DNA of 64,000 nt from Planctomycetota bacterium. Lineage in GTDB: Bacteria > Planctomycetota > Phycisphaerae > Phycisphaerales > UBA1924. The notes below the pieces were generated by a model. The model saw only the letters and a program-made list of their open reading frames with translations, searched no databases and had not been told where the DNA came from. Made by a program: the position numbers and the translations under genes. Within the stretch, counting starts at the first letter, position 1; each line of letters starts with the position of its first letter. The stretch spans positions 56,413-120,412 of the forward strand of contig JACTNA010000028.1 of NCBI GenBank assembly GCA_014584315.1, in the 5' to 3' direction. Positions 30,412 to 35,094 of this stretch are shown here, one piece after another.

Positions 30412-31275
30412 TCACACGATCGACCGCATCACCGACACCGCCGGATACAGCCCCGCCACGTGCTCGCGCGCCAGCACCCGCGGCGGATACGACGGGTTCA
30501 GCGGCTGCAACCGGATCATCTCCCGACCCGCCGCGTCCGTCTCCAGGTACACACGCTTGAAGGTCGTCTCGTGGTCCGGCTCGATCCGGGCGAAGCAGTC
30601 GGCCCCCGAACGCACCGAACGCGCCGGGCTGAACACCACCACGTCCCCCTCGCGGTAATCGGGCAGCATCGAATCGCCCACCACCCGCGCGGCGAACGCG
30701 TCCGGGTCCGCCAGGTCCGGGCAGCGCACGTACTCGTCCGCCACCCGCGCCGGATACGCGAGGTCCGTGAACTCGCGCGGATACCCCGCCGCCACCCGGT
30801 TGATGAGCGGCACTTCGAAGGGCAGCGCGACCGGCTCGGGCGACGCGGGCGACAGCCGCTCGATCAGACGACGCAACTCCCCCGAGCGGTAGGCGTCGTC
30901 CAGCGAACCCGCCAGCAACTCCGCCAGCCGCCGCGCCGCCGCACGATCCTCGCGCAGCGTCCCCAACTCCCGTCGGATCACCGGCGAGGCTTCCTCCCAC
31001 CCCGCCGCTCGCACCAGCGTCTCGGGCTTCAGAAAGAGCGCCTCTTCGAGCCGGCGCAGCAGCGCCTCGCTCGGCGGCCCGCAGCGCGAGTTCTCCACCG
31101 CCGAGAGGTAACTCTTCGAGCAGCCCGCGCGCTCCGCGAGTTGCTCGAGCGTCATCCGACGCGCGCGGCGCGCATCGTGGATCAGATCGCCCACGGTCTG
31201 TCCAGGCTCGGTCGAACTCCGTTCGATCATGATCACCCCGCCGCCGCCCTCCCCGGGCGACAAATCCGACGGCAT
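30412..31275 (-). CDS. XRE-family HTH + S24 (LexA/CI-like) peptidase repressor
   Basis: MTLEQLAERAGCSKSYLSAVENSRCGPPSEALL; S24 VVGDSMLPDYREGDVVVFSPARSVRSGADCFAR. Confidence 0.9.
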   Translation of the reverse strand: MPSDLSPGEGGGGVIMIERSSTEPGQTVGDLIHDARRARRMTLEQLAERAGCSKSYLSAVENSRCGPPSEALLRRLEEALFLKPETLVRAAGWEEASPVIRRELGTLREDRAAARRLAELLAGSLDDAYRSGELRRLIERLSPASPEPVALPFEVPLINRVAAGYPREFTDLAYPARVADEYVRCPDLADPDAFAARVVGDSMLPDYREGDVVVFSPARSVRSGADCFARIEPDHETTFKRVYLETDAAGREMIRLQPLNPSYPPRVLAREHVAGLYPAVSVMRSIV

Positions 31276-31295
31276 CGTCCGCTCCTGTGCGCCGG

Positions 31296-31316
31296 TTTGT
31301 GGTTGTACCATACAAA
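31296..31316. promoter_or_regulatory. Candidate operator in divergent AT-richer region
   Basis: TTTGT-N11-ACAAA dyad between divergent S24 repressor and HTH-ATPase operon. Confidence 0.3.
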
Positions 31317-31430
31317 GACCTTGCAGGCTGTCCATCAAGTTGCGAATATTGGCATGAAGTTCAACGAACAGTGAACACGCGGCACGGTGGCATGTCAAGA
31401 CCGGTCGCCCCAGATTCGAGGAGGCACACG

Positions 31431-31889
31431 ATGGCAGCATCCATTCGAGGCCCGATGGTCTTTGATCCAGTGGAAACCCTTGATCTCCGGCGCAAACGCC
31501 GATGCGATCAGGCTGCGGTCGCCCTCGATCGCGCCCGCCATCTCCCCCCGCAGGACCGCGTCCTGGTCGAGGCCGTCTTCCGCGACGGGCGACCCGTCGC
31601 GGAACTCGCCGCCCTCATCGCCGCCGATGCGGGCGATGCCGCCCGGGCCACCAGCGTCCGCGGCCTGCGCCGGCGGGTGCGCCGCCTGACCGCCCGTCTG
31701 CTCTCGCGCGAGTACGCCTTTGTCGCCGAGCAACTCCCCGACTGGTCGCCGACGCGGCGCCGCGTCGCCACGGCCTGCATCCTGCACGGTCGCTCCATCC
31801 GCGACGCAGCCGCCGAACTCCGCCTCTCGCTCCACACTGTCCGTCGCCACCGCGCCGCCATCGCGGAACTGCTGGAGGCCTGGTCGTGA
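31431..31889 (+). CDS. Sigma-like/HTH DNA-binding protein
   Basis: Start MAASIRGPMVFDP; C-terminal HTH RSIRDAAAELRLSLHTVRRHRAAIAELL. Confidence 0.7.
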   Translation: MAASIRGPMVFDPVETLDLRRKRRCDQAAVALDRARHLPPQDRVLVEAVFRDGRPVAELAALIAADAGDAARATSVRGLRRRVRRLTARLLSREYAFVAEQLPDWSPTRRRVATACILHGRSIRDAAAELRLSLHTVRRHRAAIAELLEAWS

Positions 31890-32584: not shown

Positions 32585-33291
32585 CGAACGGCTCGACCAT
32601 TGCCATCGAACCCGGCACGATGCGCGACTACGACGCGCTCGCGGACTTCCACTACCGCGCCGGCCCGCCCGCGACGGTCGCCCGAGGCCGACGCGGCGCG
32701 CCAGCCGTCCTCCGCGCCCGCGACGCCGAGACCGGCGCCCTCGCCGCGGTGCTCGTCGTCTCCATGCCCACGCTCAACGGCCTGTGGCGCGATCTGGCCT
32801 GGCCCGGGCGTTACTCGACCGGCGACAAGCGCCGCGACGCCGCTCGCGTCAACGCCGAACTCCGGTGCATCTCGCGCGTCGTGGTCGATCCGCGTTGGCG
32901 CGGGCTTGGCGTCGCCAGTGGGCTGGTCCGCGCCTATCTCGACCGCCCGCTCACGCCCGCCACCGAGGCGCTCGCCGCGATGGGCGGCGTCTGCCCCTTC
33001 TTCGAGCGCGCGGGGATGACGCCCTACACGCTCCCCCCCGCCCCGCACGACGCACGCCTGCTCGACGCGCTCTGGGCGTGCGGCGTCGAGCCGTGGTCGC
33101 TCCTCGACCCCGTGATCGCGCGGCGCACGCTCGAGCGTCGACCGTGGCTCGAGCGTGAACTCCGCGCCTGGGCGCGCGGCTCGCCGACGACGCGCCGCCA
33201 CGCCGGCGCGGACGCCGCCCCGCTCGCACGACTCGCGGCCGCACGCGCCTCCGTCCGCATCACGGCGTACGCCGCCGTCAGGGAGAAGTGA
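32581..33291 (+). CDS. GNAT-like N-acetyltransferase-fold protein
   Basis: RCISRVVVDPRWRGLGVASGLVRAYL acetyl-CoA-binding-like motif; GTG start overlapping previous stop by 4 bp. Confidence 0.7.
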   Translation: MTNGSTIAIEPGTMRDYDALADFHYRAGPPATVARGRRGAPAVLRARDAETGALAAVLVVSMPTLNGLWRDLAWPGRYSTGDKRRDAARVNAELRCISRVVVDPRWRGLGVASGLVRAYLDRPLTPATEALAAMGGVCPFFERAGMTPYTLPPAPHDARLLDALWACGVEPWSLLDPVIARRTLERRPWLERELRAWARGSPTTRRHAGADAAPLARLAAARASVRITAYAAVREK

Positions 33292-33294
33292 ACG

Positions 33295-33483
33295 ATGACG
33301 ACGCCGCCAACTCCACGGCGACAGCGCGTCCCGAAGCCGAAGGAAGCCCCGGACGCCCGCGACCTGCCCCACGCGCTGACGGTCTTCCTCACCGGGCGCG
33401 ATCGCGCCCGCGTGCTCCGCGCCCTGCGCCGCCTCGACGGCGACCGCGCTGTCGCCCTCAAGCGCGCCCTCGGGCTTGATTGA
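33295..33483 (+). CDS. Small basic hypothetical protein
   Basis: 62 aa ORF in the gap between the GNAT-like gene and terminase. Confidence 0.5.
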   Translation: MTTPPTPRRQRVPKPKEAPDARDLPHALTVFLTGRDRARVLRALRRLDGDRAVALKRALGLD

Positions 33484-33570
33484 GTTCACGACACCGAAGC
33501 GAGCGGACCGCGAACAACGCGAACGATCCGTGGGCGGCCTTCCCCCGGGGCGCCGAGAAGTGGGGGGGGC

Positions 33571-35094
33571 ATGGACGCCATCGAGCACGGCCCGCTGTTC
33601 ACGCCGCGCACGCCGGACGATCTGGCGCGCAGCCTGCGCGTCCTCGCCGGCGTCTCGGTTCCCCGCCGCGCCCTCACGCCCGGGCACAGCGCGCCGTTCG
33701 ACTATCTCGCCCATGCCTTCTTCGAGGGCGCTCCCGCGCTCGGCGAGGCGCCGCTCGCGCCGCCCGACGCCGTCGTCTGGGCGAACCGCGGCGGGGGCAA
33801 GACCTTCCTCGGCGCGCTCGCCACCATGCTCGATCTCGTCCACAAGCCCGGCATCGAAGTCCGCATCCTCGGCGGCTCGTTCGAGCAGTCGCGCCGGATG
33901 CACGCTCATCTCCGCGCCCTCTTCGCCCGCGAGCCTCTCGCAGGACTCGTCGATGGACGCATCACCGAGCGCCGGCTCGCCCTCCGCAACGGCTCCGTCG
34001 TCGAACTCCTCGCCCAGTCGCAGACCTCGGTCCGCGGCACCCGCGTCCAGAAACTCCGCTGCGACGAGGTGGAACTCTTCGACCCCGGCGTCTGGGAGGC
34101 CGCCCAACTCGTCACGCGCTCGAAGGCCGTCCAACTCCCCGACGGTCGCACGCTCCTCGTCCGGGGCACCATCGACTGCCTCAGCACCATGCACCTCCCG
34201 CACGGCCTCATGCACGCCATCGTCGAGGAGTGCCGCGCCGGCAGGCGGCGTCTCTTCCGCTGGGGCGTCGCCGACGCCCTCGCCCGGTGCGGCCCCGAGC
34301 ACGCCTGCCGCACCGACGACGCCGACTGCGCGCTCTTCCCCGAGTGCCAGGGCCGGGCCAAGAAGTGGAGCGACGACGAGTCGGCGGGCCACATCGAGAT
34401 CGCGGATGCGCTCGCCATGAAGGCCCGCGTCTCCGCCGCCGCCTGGGAGGCCGAGATGCTCTGCCTGCGCCCTTCGCGCACCCACGCCGTCCTTCCCGAG
34501 TTCGACCCGCGGCTGCACGTCATCCACGACGATCCGACCGACTCGCCCGCCCACACCTGGATCGCCGGCATGGACTTCGGCTACCGCTCGCCCACCGTCG
34601 TCCTCTGGGCGTGCGTCGATCCGGCGGGCACGCTCCGCGTTCTGGCCGAGCGCGTCGAGCGCGGGCTCGTCCTCGGCGATCACGTCCGCGCCATCCTCGA
34701 ATCGCCCTGGCCCCCCGGCGGGCACGCCAGGCTGGCGTGGATCGGCGTCGATCCCGCCGGTCGGCAGATGAACGACCAGACCGGCGTCAGCGCGGTGCAG
34801 GCCATGGGCCGCGCGAACCTCCGCGTCCGCACGCGCGCGATGAGCGTGCAGGAGGGCCTCGCGCTGGTTCGCGCCCGCCTGCGCCCCGCCGCCGCGGGCC
34901 TGCCGCCGCGCCTCTTCGTTCACGCCCGCTGCGCACGACTCGTCGAGAGCCTCGAGCGTTACCACTACCGCCCCGACCGGCCCGAGAGCATCGAACCGGT
35001 GAAGGACGGCAACGACCACGCCGCCGACGCTCTCCGCTACATGGTCCAGAACCTCGACGCGGCGCGCGAGTGCGCCGCCGGGAGGTACATCTGA
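33571..35094 (+). CDS. Phage terminase large subunit-like ATPase/nuclease
   Basis: Walker A-like WANRGGGKTFLGA, Walker B-like KLRCDEVELFD, RNase H-type GMDFGYRSPTVV and DGNDHAADALRYM. Confidence 0.88.
   Translation: MDAIEHGPLFTPRTPDDLARSLRVLAGVSVPRRALTPGHSAPFDYLAHAFFEGAPALGEAPLAPPDAVVWANRGGGKTFLGALATMLDLVHKPGIEVRILGGSFEQSRRMHAHLRALFAREPLAGLVDGRITERRLALRNGSVVELLAQSQTSVRGTRVQKLRCDEVELFDPGVWEAAQLVTRSKAVQLPDGRTLLVRGTIDCLSTMHLPHGLMHAIVEECRAGRRRLFRWGVADALARCGPEHACRTDDADCALFPECQGRAKKWSDDESAGHIEIADALAMKARVSAAAWEAEMLCLRPSRTHAVLPEFDPRLHVIHDDPTDSPAHTWIAGMDFGYRSPTVVLWACVDPAGTLRVLAERVERGLVLGDHVRAILESPWPPGGHARLAWIGVDPAGRQMNDQTGVSAVQAMGRANLRVRTRAMSVQEGLALVRARLRPAAAGLPPRLFVHARCARLVESLERYHYRPDRPESIEPVKDGNDHAADALRYMVQNLDAARECAAGRYI

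What the first reader, a model, noticed from the sequence alone, without database searches (positions are those of the whole stretch)
30412..35094. Compact phage-derived cassette: S24 repressor / HTH / ABC ATPase / GNAT / terminase without virion genes
Seen directly: a divergent XRE+S24 repressor (minus), an AT-richer divergent region, then a plus-strand run of HTH protein, ATPase with Walker A and LSEGQ, GNAT-like protein, small basic protein and terminase large subunit. Two junctions are 4-bp GTGA overlaps (31886/31889, 32581/32584). Housekeeping genes flank both sides and no portal, capsid, tail, integrase or lysis genes are visible. Inference: a domesticated or minimal mobile element whose terminase may serve a non-virion role (DNA packaging into particles, gene transfer, or genome processing), controlled by a CI/LexA-like switch.
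Basis: partly seen in the sequence, partly recalled or inferred. Interest (0 to 1): 0.82.

Follow-up and report, generated by a model that had tools for sequence, protein, structure and literature searches.

The report
Class-wide domesticated phage DNA-packaging operon
A whole class of planctomycete bacteria (Phycisphaerae) has kept, by vertical descent, a phage DNA-packaging engine with its own LexA/CI-like off-switch but without recognisable capsid genes beside it, which suggests that the engine now does some other DNA-handling job for the cell.

Summary
The window encodes an S24 repressor (-), then HTH > ABC ATPase > GNAT > 62-aa protein > TerL (+). In other families the full set is REP | HTH > ABC > GNAT > ParB > TerS > TerL. 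The window's 62-aa protein is the C-terminal tail of that lost ParB, and TerS is gone. TerL occurs in 50/61 relatives and 156/300 sampled Phycisphaerae, but almost nowhere else in the phylum. Its tree follows host families (17 changes, minimum 16). All catalytic residues are kept, and dN/dS is 0.13. GNAT and TerL are retained together even when 14-33 kb apart, and lost together. The repressor keeps the Ala-Gly/Ser/Lys self-cleavage set; its likely 18-bp operator occurs once in the genome. Portal and capsid families tested are absent from this genome. Phages (SSU5, nickie) and one Phycisphaerae prophage-like locus have the same order continuing into portal and capsid. So this is a domesticated, reduced packaging-initiation module. 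Best mechanism: damage-derepressed, non-virion DNA modification and translocation/cleavage (moderate confidence). A gene transfer agent with unlinked or unrecognised virion genes is the main rival. I found no published description.

The parts
30412..31230 (-). REP: XRE HTH + S24 (LexA/CI-type) repressor
   Evidence: PF00717 2.5e-18, HTH_31 1e-11. Scissile Ala147-Gly148, Ser186 and Lys224 invariant in 13 orthologues. Profile matches lambda CI and LexA structures. dN/dS 0.11.
31306..31314 (.). Conserved box TACCATACA in the divergent region (recurs in most Phycisphaerales cassettes)
31321..31349 (+). Probable promoter of the operon: TTGCAG - 17 nt - GAATAT
   Evidence: Read directly from the sequence. 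The CTTGCA hexamer recurs at the same distance from TACCAWACA in many relatives. Inferred, and not picked up by the promoter scan.
31359..31376 (.). Probable repressor operator GTTCA-N8-TGAAC
   Evidence: Present (at most 1 mismatch) in 21 of 39 orthologous divergent regions; dinucleotide shuffles give mean 0.3, maximum 3. Exact pattern occurs once in the 3.33-Mb genome.
31431..31889 (+). Double-HTH DNA-binding protein (two sigma-70-region-4-like HTHs, no complete sigma factor); likely operon regulator or DNA-recognition subunit
   Evidence: PF08281 3e-6. AlphaFold pLDDT 94, two HTHs; only weak Foldseek matches, to sigma region 4 domains. Conserved order.
31886..32584 (+). ABC-type ATPase, partner of the GNAT (fused to it in several relatives)
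   Evidence: Walker A, LSxGQ signature and Walker B DE kept. phrog_11143 1.6e-17. ABC-GNAT single ORFs in relatives.
32581..33291 (+). GNAT-fold acyltransferase of the phage ABC-GNAT type (phrog_886); candidate DNA-modifying enzyme
   Evidence: phrog_886 4.3e-8. Model pLDDT 88. Viral fold matches include phage Mom.
33295..33483 (+). 62-aa C-terminal tail of a lost ParB-like protein
   Evidence: Aligns to the C-terminus of full-length ParB_N proteins at the same position in other families.
33571..35094 (+). Terminase large subunit (ATPase + RNase H-like nuclease, with an invariant Cys4 insert); a GTG start at 33484 is possible
   Evidence: phrog_2 6.5e-16. PDB TerL 5oe8 E 1.3e-11. Invariant K77 T78 D165 E166, C240/C246/C253/C259, D335 D394 D486. 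dN/dS 0.126.

Best explanation
The cassette is a domesticated, reduced DNA-packaging-initiation module of a tailed phage. It was captured before or early in the radiation of the class Phycisphaerae and has been inherited vertically since. Shown: the ancestral order REP | HTH-ABC-GNAT-ParB-TerS-TerL, its counterpart in phages where it continues into portal and capsid genes, loss of TerS and most of ParB in the window's lineage, retention of all catalytic residues, and joint retention and loss of GNAT and TerL. Inferred: the S24 repressor holds a single dedicated operator; DNA damage (RecA-stimulated self-cleavage at the conserved Ala-Gly) derepresses the operon. The ABC-GNAT pair then acylates or otherwise marks a DNA base (Mom-like chemistry), and TerL, no longer attached to a portal, acts as an ATP-driven DNA translocase/endonuclease on the chromosome or on incoming DNA, in DNA processing, repair or defence rather than in particle filling.
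For: Order recurrence in 37 of 41 order-level loci and 14 of 20 class-level loci. TerL tree follows host families: 17 changes, minimum 16, shuffled mean 37.9. Class-restricted distribution. Catalytic residues invariant and dN/dS 0.13. GNAT in 12/13 TerL-positive and 0/18 TerL-negative genomes tested, including 7 genomes where GNAT lies outside the TerL locus. Self-cleavage residues invariant; operator enriched and unique in the genome. Same module in ~110-kb phages and joined to portal, scaffold and capsid in G064. No portal or capsid of the tested families in the window's genome. ABC-coupled GNATs in phages have been predicted to modify DNA bases (PMC7824862), and the GNAT model matches Mom.
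Against: No expression or biochemical data. A terminase without a portal is not known to translocate productively. Virion genes of untested or unrecognisable families could lie elsewhere. One genome keeps TerL in a cassette that lacks ABC-GNAT (L058) and one TerL-positive genome lacks GNAT (G209). The Mom match is fold-level only (TM about 0.4-0.5) and generic GNATs match as well. REP is missing from several class-level loci, so control by damage cannot be universal.
Confidence: 0.5

Rival explanations
1. Cryptic gene transfer agent: the cassette is the packaging half of a Phycisphaerae GTA whose portal, capsid and tail genes lie elsewhere or belong to unrecognised families; SOS-type derepression makes particles that carry host DNA, and loss of TerS/ParB favours non-specific packaging.
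For: Class-wide vertical retention of an intact TerL is GTA-like. In genus g84 the module is joined to portal, scaffold and major capsid genes that end against host genes. RcGTA TerS has lost specific DNA binding (PMC7947584).
Against: HK97 portal over cut-off in only 8/61 and capsid in 7/61 relatives, none in the window's genome. The TerL-sister portal is absent from 61 relatives and the matching capsid family rang nowhere, and the portal is absent from the 19 genomes outside f10 and G124 in the control search. No gene family besides the cassette is conserved near TerL across the class. GTAs usually keep TerL beside portal and capsid.
Confidence: 0.22
2. Anti-phage or restriction-like system: ABC-GNAT marks self DNA and the terminase nuclease attacks unmarked or incoming DNA, or the cassette interferes with packaging of infecting phages.
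For: Joint retention and loss of modifier and nuclease. Mom-type modification systems are coupled to nucleases in phages (PMC7824862).
Against: Defence systems are typically mobile and patchy; this one is vertical, usually single-locus and at a partly fixed address. A self-protecting mark should be constitutive, yet the whole operon sits behind one repressor. TerL, GNAT and the 62-aa protein had no PADLOC match; the hits of REP, HTH and ABC there are generic.
Confidence: 0.15
3. Slowly decaying prophage remnant or satellite without present function.
For: ParB and TerS are being lost step by step; some lineages have lost the whole cassette.
Against: dN/dS 0.11-0.33, TerL 0.126, like housekeeping neighbours. 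Catalytic residues are invariant over the class. Genes are kept when unlinked. No integrase or attachment site seen.
Confidence: 0.04

Closest known systems
Packaging module of SSU5/nickie/RHph-type ~110-kb phages and phage-plasmids (ParB-ParB-ABC-ABC/GNAT-DNA-binding protein-TerL-portal-capsid)
   Same: Same protein families in nearly the same order.
   Different: Phage copies continue into portal and capsid and lack the S24 repressor/HTH pair directly upstream; their TerL is much more distant than that of phages lacking ABC-GNAT.
Prophage-like locus of Phycisphaerae genus g84 (L125; ABC-GNAT-ParB-TerS-TerL-portal-scaffold-capsid)
   Same: Same order as the full cassette of other families.
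   Different: Its TerL groups with phage TerLs and it has head genes; the cassette of the window does not.
Gene transfer agents (RcGTA type)
   Same: Phage-derived, vertically kept terminase with altered or absent TerS.
   Different: No linked portal, capsid or tail genes, and none of the tested families in the genome.
Mom-family and ABC-coupled GNAT DNA-modification enzymes of phages
   Same: GNAT fold; ABC ATPase partner, fused in some relatives.
   Different: Sequence similarity to Mom not shown; linked to a terminase operon kept by the host.
LexA / lambda CI / S24 repressors
   Same: HTH plus S24 domain with Ala-Gly, Ser and Lys; divergent operon; palindromic operator.
   Different: Operator GTTCA-N8-TGAAC occurs once in the genome, so it is a dedicated rather than global regulator; NCBIfam LexA score far below cut-off.

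Membership tests
Caudoviricetes terminase large subunit | Walker A/B ATPase and RNase H-like nuclease acidic residues | tested here: met
   K77 T78, D165 E166, D335, D394, D486 invariant in 22 sequences; phrog_2 6.5e-16; PDB 5oe8 1.3e-11.
Complete prophage | Portal, capsid, tail and integration genes beside the terminase | tested here: not met
   None at the window locus; portal HMM negative in all order- and class-level loci except L125 and L127.
Gene transfer agent | Virion genes encoded in the same genome | tested here: inconclusive
   PF04860, PF05065, sister-phage portal and phrog_247 absent from G000; other portal/capsid families not tested.
Gene transfer agent | Particles that carry host DNA | not testable with these tools
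   Needs an induced culture.
Gene transfer agent | Vertical inheritance in the host lineage | tested here: met
   TerL tree follows families.
S24 (LexA/CI) self-cleaving repressor | HTH, Ala-Gly scissile bond, Ser/Lys dyad | tested here: met
   Invariant in 13 orthologues.
S24 (LexA/CI) self-cleaving repressor | RecA-dependent cleavage on DNA damage | not testable with these tools
   Needs biochemistry or an induced culture.
Global LexA | Operators at many SOS genes | tested here: not met
   The operator pattern occurs once in the genome.
Mom-family DNA acyltransferase | GNAT fold with Mom-like sequence/active site | tested here: inconclusive
   Fold match to phage Mom E 1.7e-4, TM 0.42/0.48; no sequence-level Mom match.
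Phage satellite (PICI/P4 type) | Integrase, mobility, helper dependence | tested here: not met
   No integrase nearby; vertical descent.

The most novel reading that the evidence does not exclude
A bacterial class uses a domesticated phage packaging motor without any capsid, under its own DNA-damage-responsive repressor and coupled to a DNA-modifying ABC-GNAT enzyme, as a cellular DNA-processing machine: a categorically new use of a terminase.
Probability: 0.45. Interest if true: 0.92.

Novelty: new variant of a known kind. Interest (0 to 1): 0.82.

Why it matters
Terminases are thought of as purely viral motors that need a portal and a procapsid. A lineage that has kept an apparently intact terminase, its ABC-GNAT partner and a dedicated LexA/CI-type switch across a whole bacterial class without adjacent capsid genes offers a natural test of what this motor can do on its own, or leads to an unrecognised gene-transfer system in Planctomycetota. 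The joint retention of the ABC-GNAT pair and TerL also gives a genetic handle on a widespread phage module of unknown function (phrog_886/phrog_11143).

Tried and rejected
Prophage edge: rejected; no virion genes within about 8 kb on either side in the relatives, and the portal HMM found only L125 and L127. Mobile element: rejected on the TerL tree and the lack of an integrase. Global LexA: rejected, one operator in the genome. Known defence family: PADLOC gave only generic HTH/ABC hits. Small basic protein as a separate gene family: rejected, it is the ParB tail. HTH protein as a complete sigma factor: rejected, two region-4-like HTHs only. Inteins in long TerL frames: considered at first; the breaks are short insertions or read-through frames, not followed up further. 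Left and right flanks as part of the system: rejected; the right-hand pair (35492-35986, 36478-36945) is also present in cassette-less genomes and the left-hand antiporter genes are beside the cassette only in the genus. Literature searches for terminase domestication or planctomycete GTAs found nothing on point. The ABC-GNAT prediction paper itself (NAR 2013) is not in the library.
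Full report
Observation. Family searches give XRE+S24 repressor, a double-HTH protein, an ABC-type ATPase, a weak GNAT and a terminase large subunit. The divergent region is AT-rich (50% GC against 71%). Flanks are chromosomal genes.

Recurrence. TerL was found in 50 of 61 relatives, usually at one locus at 47-65% identity outside the genus, and in 156 of 300 sampled genomes of the class. In a sample of 300 genomes of the phylum, 20 Phycisphaerae and only two weak others matched. 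Protein searches returned homologues named, where named, as Phycisphaerales, Phycisphaeraceae or Planctomycetota. In 37 of 41 order-level loci, window included, HTH-ABC-GNAT precede TerL in the same order, and 34 of these also have the divergent repressor; several of the rest are cut by contig ends. In 14 of 20 loci from elsewhere in the class the HTH-ABC-GNAT set is also within 9 kb of TerL.

Ancestral composition. In other families (f3-f6, f9, f13, f20, f23) the gap between GNAT and TerL encodes a ParB-like protein (ParB_N in 10 of 15 alignment members) and a small terminase subunit (phrog_2538 in 7 of 15). The window's 62-aa protein aligns with the ParB C-terminus. A reduction series is visible: full ParB+TerS, ParB tail+TerS (L041, L059), ParB tail only (window and 10 others), neither.

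Phage origin. The same families in the order ParB-ParB-ABC-GNAT-TerL, continuing into portal and capsid, occur in SSU5-, nickie- and Rhizobium-type phages of about 110 kb. A locus in Phycisphaerae genus g84 has ABC-GNAT-ParB-TerS-TerL-portal-scaffold-capsid. The closest viral TerLs (30-34% identity) belong to phages with a phrog_145 portal and phrog_247 capsid that lack ABC-GNAT nearby.

Vertical descent and selection. A maximum-likelihood TerL tree needs 17 label changes for 17 groups where 16 is the minimum (shuffled mean 37.9, 0 of 200 as low); families f1, f4, f5, f6 and f11 are each one clade with strong support. Against the sister species, dN/dS is 0.126 for TerL, 0.11 for REP, 0.17-0.33 for the rest, in or near the range of neighbouring housekeeping genes (0.09-0.24). 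The right-hand neighbours persist in cassette-less genomes, and in one of them (G050) the gene that lies left of the repressor in L032/L041/L042 lies near the right-hand pair without the cassette, which fits loss from a shared address.

Functional linkage. A GNAT profile hit 12 of 13 TerL-positive and 0 of 18 TerL-negative genomes (Fisher p 9e-8, not corrected for relatedness). In seven of the positives GNAT is not near TerL: 14-33 kb away (G245, G106, G177, G093, G099) or on another contig (G155, G166), together with ABC and usually HTH. Exceptions: G209 has TerL without GNAT, and the cassette of L058 lacks ABC-GNAT.

Active sites. TerL: Walker A, Walker B, nuclease aspartates and a Cys4 insert are invariant. 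ABC: Walker A, signature and Walker B are kept. REP: Ala147-Gly148, Ser186, Lys224 invariant.

Switch. An 18-bp inverted repeat GTTCA-N8-TGAAC is present in 21 of 39 divergent regions (shuffles: mean 0.3, maximum 3), in the window at 31359-31376 just downstream of a TTGCAG-17-GAATAT promoter-like pair. The exact pattern occurs once in the genome. That REP binds it and is cleaved on DNA damage is inference.

GNAT. The model is good (pLDDT 88). PDB matches are generic GNATs; viral matches include Mom of a Salmonella phage and endonuclease-like proteins. A review of jumbo phages states that a GNAT coupled to an ABC ATPase was predicted to perform an uncharacterised acyl modification of a DNA base (PMC7824862). 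So DNA modification is a reasonable but untested guess.

Virion genes. In the window's genome there is no match to PF04860, PF05065, the sister-phage portal or phrog_247. The portal search worked as a control on G064, G074 and G124; phrog_247 had no positive control. Other portal and capsid families were not tested, so a GTA with unrecognised virion genes stays possible.

Verdict. The identity (domesticated, vertically inherited, reduced phage packaging-initiation module under its own S24 switch) is about 0.9 likely. The specific mechanism, a non-virion DNA modification and translocation/cleavage machine released by DNA damage, is about 0.5; a cryptic GTA about 0.22; restriction-like defence about 0.15.

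Noticed in passing
L125 (G064 contig C3, 41.5-54.2 kb); also G074 C170/C136 and G083 C232: Phycisphaerae genus g84 carries the packaging module joined to portal (portal found in two of the three species), scaffold and major capsid genes that end against host genes, with no tail gene recognised: possibly a head-only element or GTA-like remnant.
   Followed up: partly
L058 (G048): A cassette that has lost ABC and GNAT but keeps REP, TerS and TerL.
   Followed up: no
L116 3994-8766: A sulfatase and an FAD-dependent oxidoreductase gene sit between TerS and TerL; other class-level loci carry DUF488, toxin-antitoxin-like or IS110 insertions inside the cassette.
   Followed up: partly
L129 (IMGVR_UViG_3300034175_000195): A contig filed as viral holds a Phycisphaerae-type GNAT and truncated TerL next to a primase-bearing element; probably host DNA with an inserted element.
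   Followed up: partly
window 35492-35986 (-) and 36478-36945 (+): Two neighbouring uncharacterised genes kept together across Phycisphaerales, with or without the cassette; neither has an NCBIfam match.
   Followed up: partly
TerL residues 240-259 (window about 34288-34347): Invariant Cys4 motif, probably a zinc site, between the ATPase and nuclease domains of all aligned cassette TerLs and of the prophage-type L125 and L127.
   Followed up: no
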